From CAVSKL01 sp963728475 [NCBI: Candidatus Eiseniibacteriota bacterium] (lineage in GTDB: Bacteria > Eisenbacteria > RBG-16-71-46 > JABDJR01): a DNA stretch of 64,000 nt. Location of the stretch: the NCBI GenBank assembly GCA_963728475.1, contig CAVSKL010000001.1:1240001-1304000 (forward strand). Direction: 5' to 3'. A program made the position numbers and the translations under genes. Below are positions 2,155 to 57,227 of the stretch, piece after piece. The notes under the pieces are model-generated. The model saw only the letters and a program-made list of their open reading frames with translations. It ran no database searches and had not been told where the DNA came from. Every line of letters begins with the position of its first letter. The first letter of the stretch is position 1.

Positions 2155-3480
2155 ATGACCTCGCGCCCGTCCGCCTCCCGGCCGCCCGTCTCCACTCCGT
2201 CCTTCCTGGAGCGCTTCCGGCGGGTTCGCGCCGCCACCGAGGCCCTCTGCGCCACCCTCCGGACCGAGGACTACGTCATCCAGTCGATGCCCGACGTGAG
2301 CCCGACCAAGTGGCATCTGGCGCACACCAGCTGGTTCTTCGAGACCTTCGTCCTGGAGCGCGGCGTCCCGGATTTCCAGCCTTTTCACCCGCAATACCGG
2401 TATCTCTTCAACTCCTATTACAACTCGGTGGGGCCGATGTTCTTCCGTCCCGAACGCGGGCTTCTCTCCCGGCCCACGGTGGAGGAGGTCTTCGCCTACC
2501 GCAAGCACGTGGACGAAGGGATGACCCGGTTCCTGGAGTCGGGCGATCCGGCGCGGGTGGCGGAAGTCACCCCGGTGGTGACCCTGGGGCTCCACCACGA
2601 ACAGCAGCACCAGGAACTCCTTCTCACCGACATCAAGCACGTGCTCTCGCTGAACCCTCTGGGACCGGTGTTCCGGGACCGTGAGCCGGGGCGGGAGGGC
2701 GACACGCCCGCCGCGGGATGGCTGGAGTTCGAGGCAGGGCTCCGGGAGATCGGCTTCGCCGGCCGGGGTTTTGCCTACGACAACGAGGGCCCGCGCCATC
2801 GCGAGTTCGTGAGGGCGTTCCGGCTTGCCGACCGCCCGGTCACCGCCGGCGAGTATCTGGCGTTCCTGGAGGACGGCGGATACCGGCGCCCGGATCTCTG
2901 GCTCTCCGACGGCTGGGCCACGGTGCAGGCGCAGGGTTGGACCGCGCCGCTCTACTGGCGCCGCGATTCCGACCGCTGGCTCCAGTTCACTCTCTCCGGA
3001 TGGCGGCCGGTGCTCCGCAGCGAACCGGTGGCCCACGTGAGCCTGTACGAGGCGGACGCGTTCGCCCGATGGGCGGGCGCGCGCCTTCCCACCGAGGCGG
3101 AATGGGAGATCGCGGCGGAAAGATCGGCGATCCGCGGGAACTTCGTGGAAACCGGGCGGCTCCATCCCGCGGGGGCCGGGGCCTCGGAGGTGGAAGCCGG
3201 TCCCGACGGTGACGCCGTGCCCGCGACCGCCGGCGGGCCATCGCGGCGGATGTTCGGCGACGTGTGGGAGTGGACGGCGAGCCCGTACTCGCCGTATCCG
3301 GGCTACCGGCCGCCGGCGGGGGCGCTGGGGGAGTACAACGGCAAGTTCATGGTGAACCAGATGGTGCTCCGGGGCGGGTCGTGCGCCACCCCGGTTTCGC
3401 ACATCCGCCCCACCTACCGGAACTTCTTCCCCCCGTCCGCGCGCTGGCAGTTCTCGGGCATTCGGCTGGCGCGGGACTGA
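2155..3480 (+). CDS. egtB: EgtB-type sulfoxide synthase (ergothioneine pathway)
   Basis: Predicted non-haem iron enzyme joining hercynine to a thiol donor (gamma-glutamylcysteine or cysteine) with O2. 441 aa from ATG 2155, preceded by CAGGAG about 11 nt upstream. The N-terminal DinB_2 domain has WH54LAH57 and a HHEQQH segment (H148, H152) that supply the three-His iron site. The C-terminal half is a formylglycine-generating-enzyme-like lectin fold with RLPTEAEWEIA, GDVWEWTASPY and the closing LRGGS...R.TYRNFFPP...GIRLARD. No egtD or egtC lies nearby, so donor specificity cannot be read from context. It is clearly distinct from the second family member at 18063-19412. A frame running in from acs at 94 is only a chance extension; the homology begins after 2155. 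Confidence 0.88.
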   Translation: MTSRPSASRPPVSTPSFLERFRRVRAATEALCATLRTEDYVIQSMPDVSPTKWHLAHTSWFFETFVLERGVPDFQPFHPQYRYLFNSYYNSVGPMFFRPERGLLSRPTVEEVFAYRKHVDEGMTRFLESGDPARVAEVTPVVTLGLHHEQQHQELLLTDIKHVLSLNPLGPVFRDREPGREGDTPAAGWLEFEAGLREIGFAGRGFAYDNEGPRHREFVRAFRLADRPVTAGEYLAFLEDGGYRRPDLWLSDGWATVQAQGWTAPLYWRRDSDRWLQFTLSGWRPVLRSEPVAHVSLYEADAFARWAGARLPTEAEWEIAAERSAIRGNFVETGRLHPAGAGASEVEAGPDGDAVPATAGGPSRRMFGDVWEWTASPYSPYPGYRPPAGALGEYNGKFMVNQMVLRGGSCATPVSHIRPTYRNFFPPSARWQFSGIRLARD

Positions 3481-3589: not shown

Positions 3590-4025
3590 GCGTCGCTTTG
3601 AGATACCCGGGTGCGGCCCGGGTCGCCGCCTCGGAGCCTCTGAGCGCGACTGCTGACCGTGCCGGTCGAGCCCCGCGAACCCGGAGCGTCTGAGCTACGG
3701 CCGCCGGCGCCCATTTGCCGCCGGCCGCGAACCCGGGTAGTACGTTGGGGCGCTTGAGGATACCCGGGTGCGGCCCGGGTCGCCACCCCGAGCCTCCGGG
3801 CGCTACGGCCGCCGGCGCCCATTTGCTGCCGGCCGCGAACCCGGGTATTGCGTTGGGGCGCTTGAGGATACCCGGGTGCGGCCCGGGCCGCCGCCTCGGA
3901 GCGTCTGAGCGCGACGGCCGCCGGCGCCGGTCGAGCCCGCGAACCCGGAGCGTCTGGGCGCTACGGCCGCCCGCGCCCTTTTGCCGCCGGCCGCGAACCC
4001 GGGTATTGCGTGGGGGCGCTCCTAC
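3590..4025. repeat. GC-rich ~108-bp intergenic direct repeats
   Basis: The 540-bp gap between egtB and the convergent Mpo1-like gene holds no gene I can support. It is built from imperfect copies of a unit containing TACCCGGGTGCGGCCCGGG, a GCTACGGCCGCCGGCGCCC block and GCGAACCCGGGTA. The CTTGAGGATACCCGGGTG segment recurs at 3753 and 3861 (108 bp apart), with a related copy near 3596 and a last half-copy ending near 4020. Units differ by substitutions and by insertion of a GGTCGAGCCC(C)GCGAACCCGGAGCGTCTG stretch. Copies are adjacent rather than separated by unique spacers, so this is a degenerate tandem array. Function unknown. Confidence 0.8.
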
Positions 4026-18062: not shown

Positions 18063-19412
18063 CTAGCGGGCGCAGGTGCGGAACCCCGCCGGAACGTCGT
18101 TCCGTTCCGGCAGATAGAAATTCCGCCAGGTATTGCGCAGCAGCCGCCCCCGGGTGGCCCAGCCCCCCCCCCGGAGCACCCGGTGCCGGCCGTCCATCCA
18201 GGGTTCGGAATAGTCCTGGTAGGGGTCGGGAACGAACCCGGGGTAGGGGAGGAACGCGCTCGCCGTCCACTCCCAGACGTTGCCCACCAGGCCCCGGATG
18301 CCCAGGGCGGAGTCGCCGGCCCCGAACGCCCCGACCGCGACCGGGCCCAGCCGGCGGCCGTCCAGGTTCGCCCGGTCCGGGCCGGGAGGATCCGCGCCCC
18401 AGGGGAATCGGCGCTTCCCGCCCGGTGCGGCGGGATCGTAGGTGGCCGCCCGCTCCCACTCGGCCTCGGTGGGGAGCCGCCGGCCCGCCCACGCGCAGTA
18501 GGCCTCCGCTTCGAACGCGTTCACGTGGATCACCGGCTCCGCGTCCCCGAGGGGGACCCAGGCGTCGAACTCCCGCCGTTCCCAGCCGCCGGTGCCCCCC
18601 CGCCGCCAGTAGACCGGATGGTCCGCGCGCGCCGACTCCAGCCAGCCGCGCCCCCCCGGGGACCAGAGCTCGGGGCGGCGGTAGCCGCCGTCCTCCACGA
18701 ACGCGGCGAAGCCGGCGTTGGTGACCGGCGCCCGGGCCATCCGGAACGGGGCGACCGCCACCGGGTGCGCCCACTTCTCATTGTCGAAGACGAAGGGCTC
18801 CCCGTCCGGGGTCGCGCCCAGGGCGAAACGTCCGCCGGGGACTTCCACGTCCCCTTCCAGCCCGCCGGCTTCCGCCCCCCGGTCCCGGCGGGCGGCCGGC
18901 TCCCCCCCGCGCGGGAGGGAGGCCCCCTCCGGGGCGAGCCGGAGCCGGGGGGCGGGATAGGCCAGGGTCTGGCGGGTGTAGGTGAACGCCTCGTCGTGCA
19001 TGTCCTCGTGGAAGATCACCAGCCGCAGGAAGTAAGCGAGGCCGGGGGGAACCGGATCGGCGTCGAGGAACCCCAGCACGCGGTCCAGCACCGCCGCCAT
19101 GTAGGCCAGGGTGCCGTCCAACGAGGGCAACGGCAGGTCCCAGCGGGTGTGGTGGGGGACCGCCATGGAGTCGTAGAGGGCGTCGGCGTCGGGCCGGGCC
19201 GGAGGCTCCCGGTTCAGATGGCGCACCACCCAGTTTTCCTGGAACCAAGCCAGGTGGCCGATCTCCCAGAGGAGCGGGTTTACGGTCCCGAGCCGGGGAC
19301 CCATCAGGCGCTCCGGGCCCAGGCCGGACACCAGGTCCAGGGTGCGGGCCCGGGCATCCAGCAGGTCCCGGCGGAGGCGATCGGCGGAGGCGGTCGGATG
19401 GGAAGACGTCAC
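18063..19412 (-). CDS. senA: SenA-type selenoneine synthase (EgtB/OvoA superfamily)
   Basis: 449 aa from GTG 19412 with AAAGGAGCAA upstream. Like EgtB it has an N-terminal DinB_2 domain and a C-terminal FGE-sulfatase domain. The iron-binding histidines are at H53 (WEIGHLAWFQENW), H135 and H139 (FHEDMH). The WEIGHxxWFQE signature and the C-terminal TWRNFYLPERNDVPAGFRTC block distinguish it from ordinary EgtB and match the EgtB-variant group defined as SenA, which joins hercynine to a selenosugar to give selenoneine. The divergent neighbour 54 bp away is a SenB-type selenosugar synthase, the expected partner. SenC (a SelD-like selenophosphate synthetase) is not in the window. Assignment rests on motif recall plus gene pairing. 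Confidence 0.8.
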   Translation of the reverse strand: MTSSHPTASADRLRRDLLDARARTLDLVSGLGPERLMGPRLGTVNPLLWEIGHLAWFQENWVVRHLNREPPARPDADALYDSMAVPHHTRWDLPLPSLDGTLAYMAAVLDRVLGFLDADPVPPGLAYFLRLVIFHEDMHDEAFTYTRQTLAYPAPRLRLAPEGASLPRGGEPAARRDRGAEAGGLEGDVEVPGGRFALGATPDGEPFVFDNEKWAHPVAVAPFRMARAPVTNAGFAAFVEDGGYRRPELWSPGGRGWLESARADHPVYWRRGGTGGWERREFDAWVPLGDAEPVIHVNAFEAEAYCAWAGRRLPTEAEWERAATYDPAAPGGKRRFPWGADPPGPDRANLDGRRLGPVAVGAFGAGDSALGIRGLVGNVWEWTASAFLPYPGFVPDPYQDYSEPWMDGRHRVLRGGGWATRGRLLRNTWRNFYLPERNDVPAGFRTCAR

Positions 19413-19466
19413 TTGCTCCTTTCCCCGGCTGTGAAGGCAGGGCCGGCTCGACTATTCTATCCGCCG

Positions 19467-20417
19467 ATGGTCCGGATCGTCTTGGTCAGCCCTTCCCCCT
19501 GGAGCGGAGAGACCGGGAACGCGGTCACCGCCCGGCGGTGGGCCCGTATCCTGCGGCACCTGGGTTGCCGGGTGACCGCGGCCGCGCGCTACGACGGCGA
19601 GCCCACCGACCTGGTGGTGGCGCTTCACGCCGCCAAGAGCGCGGCCTCGGTCCGCCGCGCCTACCTGGAGGGGGTGCCGTCGGTGGTGGCGCTCACCGGC
19701 ACCGACCTCTACCGGGACCTCGCGCAGAGCGAGCCGGCGCGCGAGTCCCTCCGGACCGCCTCCAAGCTGGTGTTCCTCCAGCCCAAGGGGCTGGAGCAGG
19801 TCCCCGGCCACTACTGGTCCAAGTCGGTGGTGATCCACCAGTCGGTACGGATGCCGTGGGTGGAGGCGTCGGAGCGGCCCCGGCACTTCGACGTGGCCGT
19901 GCTCTCGCACCTGCGCGAGGTCAAGGACCCGCTCCGGGCCGCTCTGGCTTCCCGCCGCCTTCCCCCCGCCTCCCGCATCCGGGTGGTCCACGCCGGCGAT
20001 GCGCTGGAAACGGCCTGCGCGCGGCGGGCGCGGGAGGAGGCCCGCCGCAATCCCCGCTACGTGTGGAAGGGGCCGCTTCCGAGGTGGCGGGCGAAGCGCC
20101 TGCTGGCCGGGAGCCGGCTCTTGGTCCTCAGCTCCCGCATGGAAGGCGGGGCCAACGTGGTGTCGGAGGCCTGCGTGGCCACGGTGCCCATCCTGGCCAC
20201 GCAGATTCCGGGGACGGTGGGGATCCTGGGAAGCAGCTATCCCGGCTACTTCCCGGTGGGGGATACCGCCGCCCTGGCCGCGCTCATGAACCGGGCCGAG
20301 ACCGAGCCCGCATTCTATGCGACAATGCGGGCGTGGGTTCGCCGGCTGGCTCCCCTTTTCCAGCCGTCCCACGAACGCGGGGCCTGGAGACATCTGCTCG
20401 AAGAGTTGCTGGGCTGA
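19467..20417 (+). CDS. senB: SenB-type selenosugar synthase (glycosyltransferase fold)
   Basis: 316 aa from ATG 19467. GT-B-like glycosyltransferase with MVRIVLVSPSPW, GNAVTARRWARILRHLGC in the N-terminal Rossmann half and SSRMEGGANVVSEACVA with PILATQIPGTVGILGSSYPGYFPVGD in the C-terminal half. This is the pattern of the TIGR04348-type family recognised as SenB, which uses selenophosphate to build a seleno-sugar from UDP-GlcNAc. SPS-type SMEGGANV replaces the usual GT4 SxxEGxxxx loop. The divergent senA is 54 bp away, so they probably share a control region. The selenium assignment is inferred from family and pairing; it depends on a selenophosphate supply elsewhere. Confidence 0.82.
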   Translation: MVRIVLVSPSPWSGETGNAVTARRWARILRHLGCRVTAAARYDGEPTDLVVALHAAKSAASVRRAYLEGVPSVVALTGTDLYRDLAQSEPARESLRTASKLVFLQPKGLEQVPGHYWSKSVVIHQSVRMPWVEASERPRHFDVAVLSHLREVKDPLRAALASRRLPPASRIRVVHAGDALETACARRAREEARRNPRYVWKGPLPRWRAKRLLAGSRLLVLSSRMEGGANVVSEACVATVPILATQIPGTVGILGSSYPGYFPVGDTAALAALMNRAETEPAFYATMRAWVRRLAPLFQPSHERGAWRHLLEELLG

Positions 20418-35077: not shown

Positions 35078-35300
35078 CTGGCTCAGGGCCCCTTCCACTA
35101 TCCCGACGCCCCCCGGGGCACGGTGGTGGACGACTACTTCGGGACCCGGGTCGCCGACCCCTACCGGTGGCTCGACGTCCGCGAGGTGAAGTCCGACCAG
35201 GACCTCCTCGATCGCATCCGGTGGGTCAAGTTCAGCCACGCCGCCTGGCTCCCCGACGACAGCGGGTTCTTCTATACCCGCCGGCCGGAGCCCGGAAGCG
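35078..35300 (+). pseudogene. Remnant of a prolyl oligopeptidase (POP family)
   Basis: One plus-strand frame reads ALAQGPFHYPDAPR, then VVDDYFGTRVADPYRWLD, and after only a few codons DQDLLDRIRWVKFSHAAWLPDDSGFFYTR. In full-length prolyl oligopeptidases the first segment is the N-terminus and the second lies roughly 130-150 residues later, so an internal deletion has joined them. The catalytic C-terminal half is absent and no start codon lies in this frame upstream (the nearby ATGs at 34995 and 35011 are in other frames). A short tandem repeat follows. It is a decaying fragment, not a gene. Confidence 0.75.
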
Positions 35301-35360
35301 CGGGACGGGGGCGCCGGCGCCTCGACGCCGGCCCTCCCGTCCCGTATCGTCAAAGGGCAG

Positions 35361-35427
35361 CGCGGCTGGTCGAGTGGAAGCGCGGCGGGTCGAATGAAAG
35401 CGCGGCGGGTCGAGGGGAAGCGCGGCG
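35361..35427. repeat. 20-bp tandem repeat, about 3.3 copies
   Basis: CGCGGC(T/G)GGTCGA(G/A)(T/G)(G)GAAAG-type units of 20 bp start at 35361, 35381 and 35401, with a partial copy at 35421. It lies between the prolyl-oligopeptidase remnant and the thioredoxin-like gene, where deletion ended the older gene. Confidence 0.85.
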
Positions 35428-35518
35428 CCGGCCCGAGCCCTGCACCCGATTCGAACCGAGGCACCGGGCCGCGGCCGCCCGCCGGCCGGTCCGCCAACCC
35501 GAGGAGCACCAAGAGACC

Positions 35519-36106
35519 ATGACACGGAACCTGATTCTCCGGAGCGCCGGGGCGGCGCTCCTGGCCCTCAGCCTGGCCGCCTGCGGCGGCGAACGGAACT
35601 CCTCGAAGACCGCGGGCGCCGGCGGCCTGTCTCCCGAGAGCCCGCCCCAGGAGATTCACGCCAAGCTCGAGTTCCCCAATTTCTACGTCTACGACCTCGA
35701 CAGCACCGAAGTGCAGACCTCCTCGCTCCTCGCCGGGCACGAATCGCTGGTCCTCTACGTCTCCACCGGATGTGAGGTGTGCCACGAGACCATCGAGGCG
35801 TGGAAGTCGATGCTCTCCGACATTCCCTCCGGCGTGAAGGTGTTCGCGATCGTCAACGACGACGTGGACTTCGCCCGGAAGTGGGTGAAGACCATCGAGT
35901 TTCCCTTTCCGCTCTACGTGGACACCCGGGGGGTGATCATCGACAAGTACGGGGTGGAGATGTATCCCACGGTGTTCGGGGTGGGGTCCGACGGCAGGGT
36001 GATCTACGTCCGGCGCGGGGTCTCCAACATCTTCACCCCGGCCCGGGCGGTGATGCTGCTCCACCCGCCGGCCGCCTCCGCCGACACCGTCGAGTCGGAG
36101 AACTAG
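35519..36106 (+). CDS. Thioredoxin-like lipoprotein (TlpA type)
   Basis: 195 aa from the ATG at 35519 with GGAGCACC upstream. The lipobox LAAC lies at about residue 22, so it is an envelope protein. The mature part has a thioredoxin fold with a redox-active STGCEVCHETIEAW (CxxC, about residue 84), and later the cis-Pro segment YPTVFGVGSDGRVIYVRRGV. TlpA/ResA-like proteins reduce or donate electrons for disulfide exchange, for example in cytochrome c maturation. No other maturation gene is nearby. The SDR gene starts 4 bp after its stop. Confidence 0.85.
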   Translation: MTRNLILRSAGAALLALSLAACGGERNSSKTAGAGGLSPESPPQEIHAKLEFPNFYVYDLDSTEVQTSSLLAGHESLVLYVSTGCEVCHETIEAWKSMLSDIPSGVKVFAIVNDDVDFARKWVKTIEFPFPLYVDTRGVIIDKYGVEMYPTVFGVGSDGRVIYVRRGVSNIFTPARAVMLLHPPAASADTVESEN

Positions 36107-42374: not shown

Positions 42375-43583
42375 TCACGCGCTCTTCCTTTCCTCGGTTG
42401 TCAACCACTCAGCGAGCTTCTGATACCCGTCGACCTTTCGTAGCCGGATCGCTCCCGAGGCGATCAGGCCGAACAAGAGCACCAACGCCGCGGCCTCCGT
42501 GGGAAACGAGCCCTGGGTCTTGACCCGGCGCCGGAACTCCCCATTGATCCGCTCGATCAGGTTGGTCGTCCGCAAGCTCTTCCACATCTCCGGCGGAAAC
42601 CCATAGAACGTCAGCAGATCCGTCCCCGCCTCCTTCAGGCTGGTCACCACCTCCGGCACCAACTTCTGCCACTTCTGGCAGAACGCCGCGTAGGCCTTCT
42701 CCGCCTCCTCGCGATCCCCGGCATGGGTGATGCCTGCATAGTCCCGCTTCAGCTCCTCGTGGCAGTGCTTCGGCGCCTTCGCCTTCAGGTTCTCCCACTT
42801 GTGGTTCGTGCACCGCTGCAGCTCCGCCTGCGGCCAGACCGCCTGCACCGCGCCGATCAGCCCCGCGTTCCCGTCCACCAGAACCAGGCGCGGGGAGGCC
42901 ATCCCCCGACTCGCCAGCCCCTCGACCACCCCGTCCCACGCCTTGCGGCTCTCGCTCGGCGCCACCCGCAGCTCCAACAGCTCCTTCTCCCCAGTCACCC
43001 GAACCCCAATCACCACCTGCACCGGCACCTTCACCACCCGACGCGCCATCCGGATCGGCAGCCGGATCCCATCCAGAACCAGGATCGGGTAGCTTTCCGC
43101 GCTCAGATCCCGACTCCGCCACCCCTGGAACACCCCCTGCAGCCGCTTCGTCAACCGCGACACCGCGCTCCGCGACAGCCCCGTCCCCTCCACCAACGGC
43201 TTCAGGGCCAGCTTCACCTTCCGCGTGTTCGCCCCCGTCAGATAACTGCTCAGGACCGCCGCATCCAGCCGGCGCGTCCGCCGCTGGTAGCGCCGGACCA
43301 GCTGGCTCTCGAACTCCTGCGTCCCCGCCTCGTTCTTCAGCCGGCCTCGTGGCACCGCGATCTCCACCGGACCAAACGAGGTCAACAGCTTGCGCGGCTC
43401 CCGGGTGCCGTGGCGGTAGCCCGCCCGGCCAGGGGTCCTCTCATGGCTGGCCGCCCCCAGAGCCGACTCGAGCTCCTCATCCAACACCGCGGCAATGACT
43501 TCCCGAATCCGACCCCGGATCAACGTCTCCAGGTCGTGAAAATCACTTCTCGGCGCGAGCACCTGTGCGGTACGATCATCCAT
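42375..43583 (-). CDS. IS256-family transposase
   Basis: 402 aa from ATG 43583 with GGAGGAACACGCC. DDE-type transposase of the IS256/Mutator group: SYLTGANTRKVKLALKPLVEG, LDGIRLPIRMARRV (first Asp), LVLVDGNAGLIGAVQAVWP (second Asp), QRCTNHKWENLKAKAP with the CxxH signature, and SLRTTNLIERINGEFRRRVKTQGSFPTE (Glu). Full length and free of stops, so it may still be active. It lies between the protease gene and the beta-helix gene, both of which converge on it. Confidence 0.94.
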   Translation of the reverse strand: MDDRTAQVLAPRSDFHDLETLIRGRIREVIAAVLDEELESALGAASHERTPGRAGYRHGTREPRKLLTSFGPVEIAVPRGRLKNEAGTQEFESQLVRRYQRRTRRLDAAVLSSYLTGANTRKVKLALKPLVEGTGLSRSAVSRLTKRLQGVFQGWRSRDLSAESYPILVLDGIRLPIRMARRVVKVPVQVVIGVRVTGEKELLELRVAPSESRKAWDGVVEGLASRGMASPRLVLVDGNAGLIGAVQAVWPQAELQRCTNHKWENLKAKAPKHCHEELKRDYAGITHAGDREEAEKAYAAFCQKWQKLVPEVVTSLKEAGTDLLTFYGFPPEMWKSLRTTNLIERINGEFRRRVKTQGSFPTEAAALVLLFGLIASGAIRLRKVDGYQKLAEWLTTEERKSA

Positions 43584-50803: not shown

Positions 50804-52400
50804 GTGGGTTCCGTCGGACTCGGGGGAGCAGGAACGAGCCCCCCGGCGGTATACCGGCCGCGACACCCGGAGCGCAGCGCTCTGTACCGGGTGGTGGAGC
50901 GGCACCTGGACACCTACCTGGGCAGCTACGAGGAGCGGTTCGAGCCGCGTCACGGTCCCCTGCGCTCGGTGGTGAAGCGCACGGCGGAGGCGTACCTGGA
51001 GTGCGGGCGGCTGCAGAACGGGTTCGCGCGGATCCGGTGTCCGCGGTGCCGGGGTGAGCACCTCTTGGCGTTCTCGTGCCGGAGGCGGAACTTCTGTCCG
51101 AGCTGCCAGGCCAAGCGATCGGCGTTGTTGGCCGAGCACCTGAGGTTCCGGGTTCTGGCGCCGGTCCCCCACCGGCATGTGGTGTTCACGATCCCCAAGG
51201 CGTTGCGGGGAGTGTTCGAGCGGGAGCGCCGATTGTTGGGGCTGTTGTCCCGATGCGCGTACGAGACGGTGCGGCGGACGTGGGGGGTGGGATTCGAGGC
51301 TGCGGACTCGAGGCCCGGCACGGTGTGCTCGATCCAGACGTTCGGGTCGTACGCGGCGAACTTCCACCCGCACATCCACGCGCTTCTGACCGATGGAGTG
51401 GCGACCCCGGACGGGGAGTGGCTGCGGCTGCCGCAATGGACACCGCAGACGCTGGAGGAGGTGTTCCGCCGGGTGGTGGTGCGTCGGCTGGTGCAGGCGG
51501 AGCGTCTGTCGGAGGAGTTCGCGGACAGGTTGCTGACGTGGACGCACACGGGGTTCTCGGTGTGGGGGGAGCAGGTGGTGTACCCGGAGGAGGGGGAGCG
51601 GCTGGAGCGGTTGGCGCGGTACGTGACGCGGCCTCCGTTGGCGGTGGGGTTGGTGGAGGAGACGGGGGAGGGGAGGATCCGGGTGCGGACCCCACCGGAC
51701 CCGCGGACGGGGACGACGGAGGTGGAGCTGGACCCGGAGGAGTTCCTGCACGCGCTGGGCCGTCAAGTGCCGGACCCGGGTCAGCACATGGTTCGCTATT
51801 ACGGGCTGTACGCGAATCGATCGCGCCGGGAGTGGCAGGCGCGGTGGCGGGGGGATCCGTGGGGCGAGGGGGAGCCGGCTCCAGGGGTGACGGTCCCTGA
51901 GGCGTCCGGACCGGGACACGGGGGCCGGGCGGGATCGAGGACGGGGAGCTGGGCGCGGTTGCTGCGCCGGGTGCTGGAGGTGGACCCGCTCTTGTGTCCG
52001 CAGTGCGGGGTGAAGATGAAGGTGGTGTCGGTGGTGACCGAGCCGCGGGTGGTGGACCGGATCCTGCGGCACGTGCGGCTGGGCGGCGGTCACGACCCGT
52101 TCGCGGAGCGGGCGCCCCCGCAGGTGCAGGCCACGCTCGCGAACTGACCCCCGTCCCGTGCCGGATCGCCACGGCGGGGCCGGTGGGTGGGGGAGGCGCG
52201 TGCTGGGCCGGCGGTTCGGGCCCCGAAGGCGGGGGAGATGGCCGGGTGGGTGAGATGACTGCGCCCGCTCAGCCCCATCACGCTCCCCCCGTGGTCACCG
52301 GGCGACACCGGAAAGGGACCGTGCGCCGCGGCTGGACGCCCGCGTCGCGCATGATGATGCCGTACAATCGCACATTCCGGCCGCAAGAAGAATACCCGGG
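50740..52400. mobile_element. IS91-type element (limits uncertain)
   Basis: A Y1/HUH transposase gene with flanking GC-rich sequence. IS91 elements lack inverted repeats and move by rolling-circle replication, so ends cannot be drawn from sequence alone. The AT-rich tail near 52360-52450 may mark its right end. Together with IS256 it brackets the exported-protein cluster. Confidence 0.5.
50804..52147 (+). CDS. IS91-family transposase
   Basis: 447 aa from GTG 50804 (the first ~15 residues are uncertain, since homologues begin near YRPRHPERSALYRVVERHL). A Cys-rich N-terminal zinc-finger region RCPRCRGEHLLAFSCRRRNFCPSCQ, an HUH motif in FHPHIHALL, and the tyrosine region HMVRYYGLYANRSR mark a single-strand nicking Y1/Y2-type transposase of the IS91 group. 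The C-terminal CPQCG...MKVVSVVTEPRVVDRIL is also characteristic. Intact, so the element may be mobile by rolling circle. Confidence 0.93.
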   Translation: MGSVGLGGAGTSPPAVYRPRHPERSALYRVVERHLDTYLGSYEERFEPRHGPLRSVVKRTAEAYLECGRLQNGFARIRCPRCRGEHLLAFSCRRRNFCPSCQAKRSALLAEHLRFRVLAPVPHRHVVFTIPKALRGVFERERRLLGLLSRCAYETVRRTWGVGFEAADSRPGTVCSIQTFGSYAANFHPHIHALLTDGVATPDGEWLRLPQWTPQTLEEVFRRVVVRRLVQAERLSEEFADRLLTWTHTGFSVWGEQVVYPEEGERLERLARYVTRPPLAVGLVEETGEGRIRVRTPPDPRTGTTEVELDPEEFLHALGRQVPDPGQHMVRYYGLYANRSRREWQARWRGDPWGEGEPAPGVTVPEASGPGHGGRAGSRTGSWARLLRRVLEVDPLLCPQCGVKMKVVSVVTEPRVVDRILRHVRLGGGHDPFAERAPPQVQATLAN

Positions 52401-52475: not shown

Positions 52476-55400
52476 CTACCGGCTCACGCCCAGGTAGGAC
52501 CGTAGCCGGGGGGGCACCGGACGGCGGGAGAGCGCCTTCCGCGCTTCCCAGGCCTCGGGCTTCGGCAGATCGAGCAGCACCCGGGTTTCCCCGGCGGTGC
52601 GAACGGCCAGCGGCACGCCGTCCCGGTAGAGCACGCGGTTGCCCGCAAGCGCCGGGACCCTCGGGCCGGGAGTCAGGATCCCCACCAGGTTGAGCGGATC
52701 GGCCGCGCCCACCGTCACCAGCTCGTCGCCCGCGGCGGGTTTCCGGCGCACGTCGCGGAGAGCGCTCACCGCCTCGGGGAGCGCAAACTGTTCGCCGGTG
52801 AAGCCGCTCACGAACCGCCCGCCCCTCAGCTCGCCGCGCGCCTCCAGCCGCCGGTAGATGCGCAGGAGGTCCCTCCAGCGCGGGGCGGTGCTCTCCCGCT
52901 CCAGGATCCTCCGGAAGACGACGCCGTAGCGGCGAAGCAGCACCCGCGCGAGGTGCTCCACGTCCTCGGGCGGAATCCCGGGAGCGCCCGCGCGTGCACG
53001 GCGGCCGCCGTTCTCCGGCACCCCGCCCCCGGCCGCGGCCCCGTCCTTCGCCGTCGAGCCGTCCCCTTCCCCCACCGGCGGTCGCAGCACCGACCACCGG
53101 CCGCCGTCCTCGATCCCGAATGCCGCCCGCCGGCCGCGCTGCGAACCGCCCCGGATCGCCCGCCGCCGGCCCGACGGCACCAACAGCGCGCGCAATCCCC
53201 CGAACCCGTCCGCGGTCACGAGCCCCGCCGCGGCCAGCTCGCCGAGCGCGGACTCGAGCTGGGTGCGCAGGAGCCCCGTCGCCGAGAGCAATTCCTCGAA
53301 GAAGAGCGCGCCGCGCGTGGAGAGCGCCTCCCACACCCGGCCCGCGTTTCCGGTGGGGGGCGCGGCCGGCGCCTTCCCCCGGGTCGCGGCGAGCCAGGTC
53401 CCGAGGCCCCGCCGCGAGACCAGGGCAACGGGGGTCGAGCGCACCGGCCCCGCCCGGCCCGAACCCACCGTGGCCGGCCCCGCCCGGCCCGAACCGGGGC
53501 GGGAAGGCGCCGGGCCCTCGCTCCCGCCGAGGGCCGTCCCGCCGGAGCCGTCTCCATCCGGGGCCTCGGGCCGGGACGCGGCAGGCGGGGAGAGCCGCGC
53601 CCACGCCGTTCGCCCCGACTGACAGAGCGCGTCCAGCCACGCCGGATCGTAGTCGGCGATCCGGGCGGGGAGGAGGTCGCCCTCCCAGGCCACCGCGGGC
53701 GCCTCGAATCCCTCGAGCTGCTCCACCGCGCGGGCGAGGCTTTCCGGCCCCTCGCCCTGCTCGCCGGGGAGCGCCCCCTGCCAGCGGAAGAGGAACCGCA
53801 GGAAGTCGGCCGCGGTCACCGGCTCGATTTCCCGCCGCAGCCGTTGAATCGTGTACCTATGGATGCGGGCGAGCAGCCCCCGCTCGCACCACTCGGTCCC
53901 GGGGGCGCCGGGGGTGAACGAGCCGCGCAGGACCACGCCTTCCGTTTCCAGAGCGACCAGGGCGGCCTCGACCTCGGCCTCCGAAGCGTCCAGCGATGTC
54001 GCCACCGCCGCCGCGGTCACCGGACCCAGGCCCTCCAGGCGCCCCCGCACCAGCTCCCGCAAGGCGTCGCCGCGTGTCCACGCCCGCGCCTCCGGCGCCC
54101 GCACCGGAGGTTCCCACCGCGCGTCCGGGAGCGCCGCCCGGAGTTCCTCGCTGCGCTCCGCCGCCGCCCAGAGGACCGGGCCGCCGCCGGTGGGCACGAC
54201 TCGCGCCGCCCGCCCCTGCGAGGCCAACGAGTCCAAGAAGCCGCGCCATGCGCCGCCCGCCCCGGCGCCCCCGGAGACCCCGCCCGCCCCGTCCCCACCA
54301 GCGCCGCCCGCCCCGTCCCCACCAGCGCCGCCCGCCCCGTCCCCACCAGCGCCGCCCGCCCCGTCCCCACCAGCGCCGCCCGCCCCGTCCCCACCACCGC
54401 TTGCCCCACCAACGCCGGCAGCCTCGCCGGAATCCAGCGCCCCCCGGAGCCCTTCCGATTCGGTGAGGTATCCGAGCACCATCAACCCGTCGTGCAGCTC
54501 GTCGGGATCGCGGGCGTCGGGCCAGGCTTCGGCGCGCACCCGCGCGATCGCCTGAACGTCCAGCGCGCCCAGATCCGAAGCCGACTCCGGATCCAGCCAA
54601 CGCCGGCTCATCACCGCCTGGGTGCGCCGCTCCTCCAGAGGCGCATCGTCCAGGAACGCGTAGGGCTTGGCGTTCAGGATCTCCTGGGCGAGCGGCGACG
54701 GTTCGCGCAGGTCGCGTGCCACCAGCCGCCGGGCGCCGCTCTCCATGGAACGCAGGAGCGACTCCAGCCCTTCCACGTCCATGGCCCCGGTGATGCAGTC
54801 GCGGATCGCCTCCTGGACCAGGGGATGATCCGGAATCTCGCGGTCGCCGGCGATGTTCTCCAGACACGCGAGCTGGTCGGGGAAGACCACCGCCGCCAGG
54901 TCGTCGGCTTCCATGCGCTGGATCTGCGGCGCCACCTTCCGCCCGCCCCGGAACCGCAGCACCGCCAGCGCCCGCGCCGCCGTCCACCGCCACCGCACCG
55001 CGAAGAGTGGAGCGTCCAGCAATGCCTGGACCAATACCTCCCGCACGGTGGCGGAATTCAGGTACCGGAAGACGTCGTCGAGGGGAAAGCTGTGGGTGGG
55101 GCCGAGCGACAACACGATCGCGTTCTCGTCCGCCGCCGCCTGCAGTTCGAAGTTGAACTTCCGGCAGAAGCGCTTTCGCAGCGCCAGCCCCCACGCCCGG
55201 TTCACCCGGCTCCCGAGCGGCGCGTGGATCACGAGCTGCATGCCCCCGGTCTCGTCGAAGAAGCGTTCCAGGACCAGCGTGTCCGCGGTGGGCAGGACCC
55301 CGAGCGCGGCCCGGCCCGCGGCCAGGTACTCCACGATCTGGTCCGAGGCCTCGGGGGGGAGCCCCACGGTGTCCCCGAGCCGGCGCGCGGCGCCTTCGAC

Positions 55401-57227
55401 CGAACCGGACGCGAGCCATCCCTCGATCTCCGCCCGCAATCGCGACACCGCGTGCGAAAGCTCGTCGGTCCGCCCCGGCGCTTCGCCCAGCCAGAACGGG
55501 ATGTTCGGCGGCTGCCCTCCCGCGTCCTCCACCCGCACCACCCCCGGCTCCACCCGGAGAATGCGCCACGATGCGTTCCCGAGCTGGAACACGTCGCCGG
55601 CCATGCTCTCCACCGCGAAGTCCTCGTTCACGGTGCCGATCATGGTCTCGGCCGGTTCCAGCACCACGCGGTAGTCGGCGGTGTCGGGAATGGCTCCCCC
55701 CGAGGTGACCGCGGCCAACCGCGCCCCCCGACGTGGCCGCAAACGCCCGTTCACCGCGTCCCGGTGAAGGTGGGCGCTCCGCCGCCCCCGCCGGGTGGCG
55801 AAGCCGTCGGAGAGCATGCGCACCACCGCGTCGTAGTCGGCCCGCAGGAGCCCCCGGTACGGCCAGGCCCGCCGCACCAGCGCGTAGAGCCCATCCTCGT
55901 CCCGCTCGCCGCAGGCGACCTCGGCCACGATCTGCTGGGCGAGAATGTCCAGCGGCCGCTCCGGAATCCGGAGCCGGTCAAGCTCGCCCCGGCGAACCGC
56001 GTCGAGGAGCGCCGCGCACTCCACCAGCTCGTCACGGCTGAGCGGAAAGAGCCGCCCCTTGGGGAGCCCGGTCACCGCGTGGCCGGAGCGCCCCACCCGC
56101 TGCAGAAAGGTGGCGATCGACCGGGTGGAGCCGAGCTGGCAGACCAGGTCCACGTCGCCGATGTCGATCCCCAGCTCCAGGGAGGCGGTGGCCACCAGCG
56201 CCTTCAAAGCGCCGTTCTTGAGGCGCCTCTCCGCGTCCAGCCGCTGCTCCTTGGACAGGCTCCCGTGGTGCGAGGTCACGTCCCCCTCGCCCAACCGCTC
56301 GCTCAGGTGGCGCGCCACCCGCTCGGCGTGGCGGCGGGTGTTGACGAAGACCAGGGTGGTCCGGTGCTCCCGCACCAGCGCGGCCAGCCGGTCGTAGATC
56401 TCCTCCCACACCTCGCCGGCCAGGACCGGCTCGAGCGGCGAGGAGGGAAGCTCCAGCGCCAGGTCCAGGGTCCGCCGGTGACCGGTGTCCACGATCACGC
56501 AGTCGGGGGCCGCGCCCGCTCCGGCCCCGTCCGCGGCGCTGCCCGAGGCCTCGGAGCCGAAATCCGAGCCCGCCCCTACCAAGAACCGCGCCACGTCCTC
56601 GATCGGCTTCTGGGTGGCCGAGAGCCCCACCCGGACCAGGGGACCGGCGACCAGGTCGGCCAGCCGCTCCAGGGAGAGGGCCAGGTGCGACCCGCGCTTG
56701 GTCCCCACCACCGCGTGGATCTCGTCCACGATCACCGTGCGCACGGTGCGGAGCATCTTCCGGCCCCGGTCGCCGGTGAGCAGGATGTAGAGCGACTCGG
56801 GGGTGGTGACCACGATGTGGGGCGGGCGGCGCACCATGGCCTCGCGCTCCGAGGCGGTGGTGTCGCCGGTCCGGACCAGGTGGCGGATGGGGGCGGCGTC
56901 GGGGAAGCCGCGGATGGCCAGCTCCGAGCCGATCTCGGCCAGCGGCTCCTCCAGGTTCCGGTGGATGTCGTTGGAGAGCGCCTTCAAGGGCGAGACGTAG
57001 AGAACGTGGGTCTGGTCGGCCAGCTCGCCCCGCTCCGCCCGGCGGACCAGGTCGTCGACGGCGGCGAGAAAGGCGGCAAAGGTCTTGCCCGAGCCGGTGG
57101 GGGCGGCGATCAGGGTGTGGCGTCCCGCCTGGATGGCCGGCCAGGCCAGGCGCTGCGGCTCGGTGGGCCCGGGGAAACGGCGGGTGAACCATGCGCTCAC
57201 CGCGGGATGAAAGAGTTCGGTGATCAT
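52476..57227 (-). CDS. lhr: Long Lhr-type superfamily 2 DNA/RNA helicase
   Basis: 1583 aa from ATG 57227. Motifs are in order: [16 protein letters not shown] and [77 protein letters not shown]. The protein continues as the Lhr helicase-like core plus a long C-terminal part with the usual [22 protein letters not shown] winged-helix and Lhr-CTD segments. A Gly-rich insertion of repeated GGDGAGGA units lies near residue 950 and appears to be a tandem-repeat expansion. ATP-dependent 3'-5' unwinding, probably in repair. The antisense 1484-aa ORF here is a high-GC shadow. Confidence 0.94.
54281..54396. repeat. 24-bp tandem repeat inside lhr
   Basis: GTCCCCACCAGCGCCGCCCGCCCC units begin at 54291, 54315, 54339 and 54363, with partial copies at both ends. 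On the coding strand this encodes repeated GGDGAGGA, so changes in copy number would keep the frame. Confidence 0.95.

What the first reader, a model, noticed from the sequence alone, without database searches (positions are those of the whole stretch)
18063..20417. Divergent senA-senB pair suggesting selenoneine biosynthesis
SenA-type signatures (WEIGHxxWFQE; H53, H135, H139; C-terminal TWRNFY...AGFRTC) lie 54 bp from a SenB-type glycosyltransferase. In the published pathway SenB makes a selenosugar from selenophosphate and UDP-GlcNAc, and SenA joins it to hercynine. The third known gene, senC/selD-like, is not beside them, and there is no EgtD for hercynine in the window, so the pathway would be dispersed in this organism.
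Basis: partly seen in the sequence, partly recalled or inferred. Interest (0 to 1): 0.82.

Follow-up and report, generated by a model that had tools for sequence, protein, structure and literature searches.

The report
Selenoneine-making gene pair senA–senB
Two back-to-back bacterial genes very probably make the selenium antioxidant selenoneine, and in some distant relatives one of the two genes seems to carry selenium in its own protein as selenocysteine.

Summary
Window 18063-19412(-) encodes a full-length SenA and 19467-20417(+) a full-length SenB, head to head, 54 bp apart. SenA passes NCBIfam SenA (509 bits, cut-off 420), fails EgtB, keeps the three iron histidines, and has Tyr/Asn/Phe at the three sites whose change turns histidine-using OvsA into a hercynine-binding variant. 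SenB keeps the catalytic Lys and donor-binding residues of the tested V. paradoxus enzyme. SenB lies near SenA in 68 of 80 related loci. Of 70 relatives' genomes searched, 66 have EgtD and 59 SelD. Neither was found in the window, and the window's own genome is not held, so a complete pathway is inferred.

The pair is a new member of a known kind. Outside the window I found something possibly new: 10 of 81 SenB relatives carry one in-frame TGA. Five, all Poribacteria, have it at a column that is cysteine in 67 of 82 rows. SenB thus looks like an unrecognised selenoprotein family in some lineages; the window's copy is not one.

The parts
18063..19412 (-). SenA, selenoneine synthase (449 aa; DinB_2 + FGE-sulfatase domains; Fe ligands H53/H135/H139; Y401, N431, F432)
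   Evidence: NF041186 509 bits > cut-off 420; TIGR04373 81 > 71; TIGR03440 EgtB 320 < 360; domains; tree; residues; AlphaFold2 model pLDDT 80.8
19467..20417 (+). SenB, selenosugar synthase (316 aa; K153 = catalytic K158 of V. paradoxus SenB)
   Evidence: TIGR04348 350 bits > cut-off 300; the four PDB sequences matched at E<=0.001 are all SenB-type; residue mapping
19413..19466 (.). 54-bp spacer between the divergent starts, presumably holding both promoters (inference)
   Evidence: Sequence; no sigma-70-type match found; a divergent arrangement occurs in 23 of 80 relatives
2155..3480 (+). EgtB, type II ergothioneine (sulfoxide) synthase; uses hercynine; 14.6 kb from the pair
   Evidence: TIGR03440 587 bits > cut-off 360; SenA model 363 < 420; best PDB relatives are the Chloracidobacterium EgtB structures, 570 bits

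Best explanation
The two genes encode the committed steps of selenoneine synthesis. SenB takes selenophosphate (from a SelD/SenC encoded elsewhere) and a UDP-sugar and makes a selenosugar. SenA, a non-heme iron enzyme, uses O2 to join the selenosugar's selenium to the imidazole ring of hercynine (from an EgtD encoded elsewhere); loss of the sugar part gives selenoneine. Shown here: family, active-site residues, gene pairing, phylogeny, and presence of EgtD and SelD in most relatives searched. Taken from the published pathway (PMC9814287): the reactions. Inferred: that they run in this organism and that its genome carries selD and egtD. The EgtB in the same window implies that hercynine is made, so sulfur (EgtB) and selenium (SenA) branches probably share one hercynine pool.
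For: Both proteins pass curated equivalog cut-offs. SenA falls in an 84-row clade with V. paradoxus SenA, OvsA and the relatives (SH-aLRT 99), apart from the EgtBs, the window's own EgtB included. The PDB title of 8ux5 says OvsA M401Y/Q430N/A431F is a hercynine-binding variant with selenoneine-biosynthetic activity; the window has Y401/N431/F432, as does V. paradoxus SenA. SenB keeps N20, T23, H58, T83, T85, Q131, R155, K158, E231 and E239 of V. paradoxus SenB; R61 is K, H235 is N, T214 is A (roles from PMC10891094). SenB is within about 1.2 kb of SenA in 68 of 80 loci (45 co-directional, 23 divergent). EgtD: 20 of 20 over cut-off, then 46 of 50 at E<=1e-30, 38 over cut-off; 0 of 14 control genomes over cut-off. 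SelD over cut-off: 17 of 20 and 42 of 50, against 2 of 14 controls. In 64 Gemmatimonadota genomes EgtD is in 6 of 6 with SenA against 7 of 58 without (p=2e-5). 13 of 20 genomes have EgtD and SenA but no second full-length SenA/EgtB-type protein (draft genomes may be incomplete).
Against: The nearest solved structures by sequence and by fold are OvsA, not SenA (321 v 258 bits; profile 467 v 346; Foldseek); V. paradoxus SenA lacks a stretch of about 45 residues present in the window protein and OvsA. OvsA also passes the SenA model's cut-off (434 bits), so that test alone does not exclude it. Y-N-F is not universal in the clade: 61 of 81 rows, with 17 Y-N-Y, 2 Y-T-Y and 1 C-C-L, and EgtB 6o6l also reads Y-N-F. 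SelD's association with SenA in Gemmatimonadota is not significant (6 of 6 v 41 of 58, p=0.18). SelD was not found over cut-off in 11 of 70 relatives and EgtD not at E<=1e-30 in 4 of 70. Neither is in the window. The window SenA departs from 7 of 126 near-invariant columns.
Confidence: 0.87

Rival explanations
1. The SenA-like protein is an OvsA: it puts selenium on histidine for ovoselenol rather than on hercynine for selenoneine, fed by the same SenB.
For: OvsA is the best-scoring solved structure and passes the SenA model. At 17 columns OvsA has the clade consensus where V. paradoxus SenA does not, and the window has it at 15 of them.
Against: The window has Y/N/F, not the wild-type OvsA M/Q/A, at the three switch sites. 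It has the SenA state at 14 of 14 columns where V. paradoxus SenA and the clade agree against OvsA. TIGR04373 is passed (81 > 71) while OvsA fails it (57). EgtD is in 66 of 70 relatives' genomes searched.
Confidence: 0.06
2. It is a second ergothioneine-type sulfoxide synthase, and the glycosyltransferase makes a thiosugar or some other sugar.
For: Same fold as EgtB; EgtB 4x8b scores about as high as V. paradoxus SenA (261 v 258 bits).
Against: It fails the EgtB cut-off (320 < 360), lies outside the EgtBs in the tree, has SenB nearby in 68 of 80 relatives, and a proper EgtB is already in the window.
Confidence: 0.04
3. The pair is a remnant or a partial acquisition: the genome lacks selD, so no selenoneine is made.
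For: No SelD or EgtD found in the window; own genome not held; 11 of 70 relatives lack a SelD over cut-off, though one of these (G008) has a partial match at a contig end and another (G013) a short C-terminal match.
Against: Both frames are intact with codon usage like the other called genes, and the iron ligands, switch residues and catalytic Lys are kept.
Confidence: 0.05

Closest known systems
sen cluster of Variovorax paradoxus (SenA, SenB, SenC)
   Same: SenA and SenB families, catalytic residues, gene pairing; SenB from V. paradoxus and two relatives biochemically tested (PMC10891094)
   Different: No senC beside the pair; the SenA keeps about 45 residues missing in V. paradoxus; SenB has R61K, T214A and H235N; the orientation in V. 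paradoxus was not checked here
OvsA (ovoselenol selenoxide synthase, Halomonas utahensis)
   Same: Same clade, same fold, closest solved structures
   Different: Wild-type OvsA has Met/Gln/Ala where the window has Tyr/Asn/Phe
EgtB type II (Chloracidobacterium thermophilum)
   Same: Fold and iron site; the window's second enzyme at 2155-3480 is of this family
   Different: The window SenA fails the EgtB cut-off and is paired with a Se-glycosyltransferase

Membership tests
SenA (NF041186) | Curated score above 420 bits | tested here: met
   509 bits; caution: OvsA also passes, 434
SenA (NF041186) | Three iron-binding histidines | tested here: met
   H53, H135, H139; H in 93 of 93 rows
SenA (NF041186) | Hercynine-type residues at the OvsA switch sites (Tyr/Asn/Phe) | tested here: met
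   Y401, N431, F432; meaning taken from the PDB title of 8ux5; 61 of 81 clade rows share all three
SenA (NF041186) | Selenosugar plus hercynine converted to selenoneine | not testable with these tools
   Needs an enzyme assay
SenB (TIGR04348) | Curated score above 300 bits | tested here: met
   350 bits
SenB (TIGR04348) | Catalytic Lys (K158) and donor residues N20/T23/E231 | tested here: met
   K153, N18, T21, E226; the published EGGAHV motif reads EGGANV here (H235 to N)
SenB (TIGR04348) | Uses selenophosphate and a UDP-sugar | not testable with these tools
   Needs an enzyme assay
Complete sen pathway | A selenophosphate source (selD/senC) and hercynine source (egtD) in the genome | not testable with these tools
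   Own genome not held; not found in the window; found in most of 70 relatives searched
OvsA | Met/Gln/Ala at the switch sites | tested here: not met
   Y/N/F
EgtB (TIGR03440) | Curated score above 360 bits (for the 18063-19412 protein) | tested here: not met
   320 bits; the 2155-3480 protein does meet it, 587

The most novel reading that the evidence does not exclude
SenB, the enzyme that puts selenium on a sugar, is itself a selenoprotein in several lineages. In Poribacteria five of 15 SenB genes carry a single in-frame TGA at the column equivalent to residue 144 of the window's SenB (V149 of V. paradoxus SenB), nine residues before the catalytic lysine, where 67 of 82 rows have Cys. Two further genomes have TGA at another partly-Cys column (5), and two Gemmatimonadota share one at column 129. 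The selenophosphate made by SelD would then feed both the product and the selenocysteine in the enzyme that makes it. The window's SenB has Val, Met and Ala at columns 5, 129 and 144 and is not a selenoprotein.
Probability: 0.8. Interest if true: 0.68.

Novelty: new member of a known kind. Interest (0 to 1): 0.45.

Why it matters
Selenoneine is one of two small selenometabolites recently characterised in bacteria (PMC13188914, passage). This pair, the egtB near it and its relatives, which carry the names of more than ten phyla in their record titles, show how far the pathway reaches beyond the betaproteobacteria in which SenB was characterised, and that sulfur and selenium branches can sit near each other on one hercynine supply. 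If the TGA codons in relatives' senB genes are read as selenocysteine, the selenometabolite pathway and the selenoprotein machinery are directly linked, and ordinary gene callers would cut those genes short.

Tried and rejected
OvsA as the identity of the SenA-like protein: taken seriously because it is the top PDB hit; rejected on the switch residues, TIGR04373 and relatives' EgtD. Family score alone was rejected as proof because OvsA also passes.

Taxon of the window: unresolved. AcsA (47-1942) matched 47 of 64 Gemmatimonadota genomes at E<=1e-150, mostly 58-63% identical (range 47-63% near full length; one partial match 71%), and at best 60% over full length among 30 relatives. FlgD-type C-terminal domains, and a Por-type one below its cut-off, hint at the FCB group (recalled), no more.

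Promoters in the 54-bp spacer: none found.

Sec in SenB, points against: folding downstream of the TGAs did not stand out from shuffles. Of four SelD TGAs meant as positive controls my pattern located two, one strong (z -4.2) and one not (0.5), so the test is weak. The TGA of L013 (column 170) sits at an Arg column and may be a point mutation or error. In L011 the TGA is near the start and a GTG two codons later could be the true start. The genome of L006 (G103) gave no SelD at E<=1e-28. SelD was not seen in the short loci L121 and L130, whose genomes were not searched for it. Column 129 is not Cys in any other row. SelA, SelB and tRNA-Sec were not searched for. TGA as an ordinary sense codon is unlikely: TGA ends long open frames in the same loci.

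Literature: searches listed no paper that I could see naming SenB as a selenoprotein; the lists of 37, 74, 79 and 92 were capped (20 of 1,930, 20 of 160, 10 of 3,327, 10 of 11). The 2026 review PMC13188914 holds neither TIGR04348 nor 'glycosyl' in its main text. Two selenoprotein papers by Haft (2023, 2025) and the two Kayrouz papers (Nature 2022, Nat Chem 2024) are not held, so an earlier report cannot be excluded.

Full report
What is there. Window 18063-19412(-) is an intact 449-aa frame and 19467-20417(+) an intact 316-aa frame, divergent, with 54 bp between their start codons. The first scores 509 bits against NCBIfam SenA (cut-off 420), 320 against EgtB (cut-off 360), 143 against the OvoA domain (cut-off 400) and passes the EgtB-X signature (81 > 71); the second scores 350 against SenB (cut-off 300). 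The PDB relatives of the second at E<=0.001 are four SenB-type sequences.

Which substrate. Passing the SenA model does not exclude OvsA, which makes ovoselenol from histidine: OvsA scores 434. OvsA is also the nearest solved structure by sequence and by fold of the AlphaFold2 model (pLDDT 80.8, pTM 0.83). The deciding evidence is the set of three residues named in the title of PDB entry 8ux5: OvsA M401Y/Q430N/A431F is called a hercynine-binding variant with selenoneine-biosynthetic activity (the paper itself was not available). The window protein has Y401, N431 and F432. Of 81 clade rows from relatives, 61 have Y-N-F, 17 Y-N-Y, 2 Y-T-Y and one (L087) C-C-L; V. paradoxus SenA and EgtB Cabther have Y-N-F, EgtB 4x8b Y-N-W. 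So the triad excludes wild-type OvsA but does not by itself separate SenA from EgtB; the family models and the tree do that. At 14 columns where V. paradoxus SenA agrees with the clade and OvsA does not, the window sides with SenA 14 times; at 17 columns where OvsA agrees and V. paradoxus SenA does not, the window has the consensus 15 times. That consensus comes from 80 rows chosen for likeness to the window, and the OvsA row used is the 8ux5 variant.

Phylogeny. In a 93-row tree the window SenA lies in an 84-row clade with V. paradoxus SenA, OvsA and the relatives (SH-aLRT 99), apart from EgtB of both reference types and from the window's own EgtB (quick tree, long branches for V. paradoxus SenA and OvsA, no OvoA row). 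Of 97 frames found in loci, seven from re-fetched loci, two duplicates and one short frame were left out; six window and reference rows were added.

SenB residues. Against V. paradoxus SenB, whose residues were tested by mutation (PMC10891094, sections 8-10 read), the window keeps N20, T23, H58, T83, T85, Q131, R155, V157, K158, E231 and E239; R61 is Lys, T214 Ala and H235 Asn, so the EGGAHV motif reads EGGANV.

Company kept. Eighty related loci from many phyla were fetched with the SenA protein (the 80 best of 584, itself a capped list). SenB lies near SenA in 68 of 80: 45 downstream in the same direction (median 15 bp, at most 1,221) and 23 divergent (median 99 bp, at most 746). Of the 12 without it, five have 10 kb on both sides; three of those five genomes (G011, G017, G029, Poribacteria) have SenB elsewhere, right beside SelD, a clear precedent for a split pathway. 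EgtD lies in 39 and SelD in 17 of the 80 loci. Whole genomes were searched for 70 of the 80 loci: EgtD over cut-off in 20 of 20 and, in 50 more, 46 at E<=1e-30 of which 38 are over cut-off; SelD over cut-off in 17 of 20 and 42 of 50. Controls over cut-off: EgtD 0 of 14, SelD 2 of 14. The ten loci left out were L028, L035, L036, L037, L041, L047, L056, L057, L065 and L069. Of the first 20 genomes, 13 have one SenA and no second full-length protein of the SenA/EgtB kind, so there EgtD has no other known partner in this family, unless the draft genomes miss one. In 64 Gemmatimonadota genomes, SenA over cut-off is in 6, SenB in 5 (all within those 6), EgtD in 13 (all 6 included, p=2e-5) and SelD in 47 (all 6 included, not significant, p=0.18); two more genomes (G091, G101) have a SenA piece at a contig end next to SelD.

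Window 2155-3480(+) is a type II EgtB (587 bits, cut-off 360), best matched by the Chloracidobacterium EgtB structures (570 bits). EgtD and SelD were not found in the window. EgtB needs hercynine (established pathway knowledge), so an egtD elsewhere in this genome is likely, and ergothioneine and selenoneine branches probably share it. Seven of 20 relatives also hold a second full-length protein of this kind; six of the seven fall outside the SenA clade, on the EgtB side, so holding both enzymes is not rare.

A lead outside the window. Asking for a SenB alignment failed because some relatives' genes hold a stop codon. Of 81 SenB relatives (five duplicate loci removed), 10 contain exactly one in-frame stop, always TGA: five at column 144 (L121, L130, L131, L015, L032; all Poribacteria), two at column 5 (L011, L006), two at column 129 (L112, L115; Gemmatimonadota), one at column 170 (L013). 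Column 144 is Cys in 67 of 82 rows (TGC 52, TGT 15) and column 5 is Cys in 25 of 82. In Poribacteria 84 genomes were searched, 15 have SenB and 5 of 15 carry the TGA; in the 64 Gemmatimonadota 2 of 5 do. Internal stops occur in SenB in 5 of 66 loci but in SenA in 0 of 80 and EgtD in 0 of 39 (p=0.005). Between the five Poribacteria genes, differences downstream of the TGA are concentrated at third codon positions just as upstream (10 of 10 pairs), so the part after TGA is under selection as protein. On the SenB tree (81 rows) the column-144 TGA rows sit on several branches among Cys rows (many branches there are weakly supported). SelD of six of the ten genomes is over cut-off and itself carries an in-frame TGA (G006, G028, G108, G104, G063, G067), and SelD in L131 has an in-frame stop too; L006's genome gave none, and L121's and L130's were not searched. 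RNA folding gave no support for a SECIS. Sec/Cys pairing is the standard criterion for new bacterial selenoproteins (PMC13188914, passage), and I put this at 0.8; it is not a property of the window's SenB.

Verdict. The window holds a normal, probably working senA-senB pair: a new member of a known kind, with an egtB nearby. The wider interest lies in the likely selenocysteine form of SenB in relatives, which I did not find described in the papers that could be searched (several lists capped), with the gap that four key papers are not held. Papers: PMC9814287 read whole; PMC10891094 abstract and sections 8-10; PMC13188914 and PMC12013277 passages only; PMC10702425 and the others from search listings only; Kayrouz 2022 and 2024 and Haft 2023 and 2025 not seen.

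Noticed in passing
L121, L130, L131, L015, L032 (SenB genes); also L011, L006, L112, L115, L013: Single in-frame TGA codons in SenB genes of relatives, five of them at a column that is Cys in 67 of 82 rows: probable selenocysteine in the selenosugar synthase.
   Followed up: yes
window 2155-3480: Type II EgtB (ergothioneine synthase) 14.6 kb from senA-senB, no egtD found beside it.
   Followed up: yes
window 3694-3928: GC-rich tandem repeat, period 108, 2.2 copies at 91%, just downstream of egtB.
   Followed up: no
window 54250-54400: 24-bp tandem repeat, 6.2 copies, inside the large helicase frame 52476-57227.
   Followed up: no
window 35123-36106: One frame matches a short piece of the prolyl oligopeptidase N-terminal domain followed by an AhpC/TSA domain: an odd fusion or a wrong start choice.
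   Followed up: no
window 42375-43487 and 50891-52147: A Mutator-family transposase and an IS91-type transposase lie either side of beta-helix proteins whose third-position GC (0.78-0.83) is lower than in most other called genes.
   Followed up: no
L074 9947-11212: The Caldithrix SenA joins OvsA in the tree (SH-aLRT 93, long branch) yet has Y/N/F and EgtD in its genome; possibly near the branch from which OvsA arose.
   Followed up: partly
L087 (G007:C79:150900-152400): Second SenA-like protein in G007, 402 bits (below the cut-off of 420), with C-C-L at the three switch sites in this alignment.
   Followed up: no
G011, G017, G029 (L126, L127, L124): In these Poribacteria the pathway is split: selD-senB in one place, senA (with egtD within a few hundred bp) in another.
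   Followed up: partly
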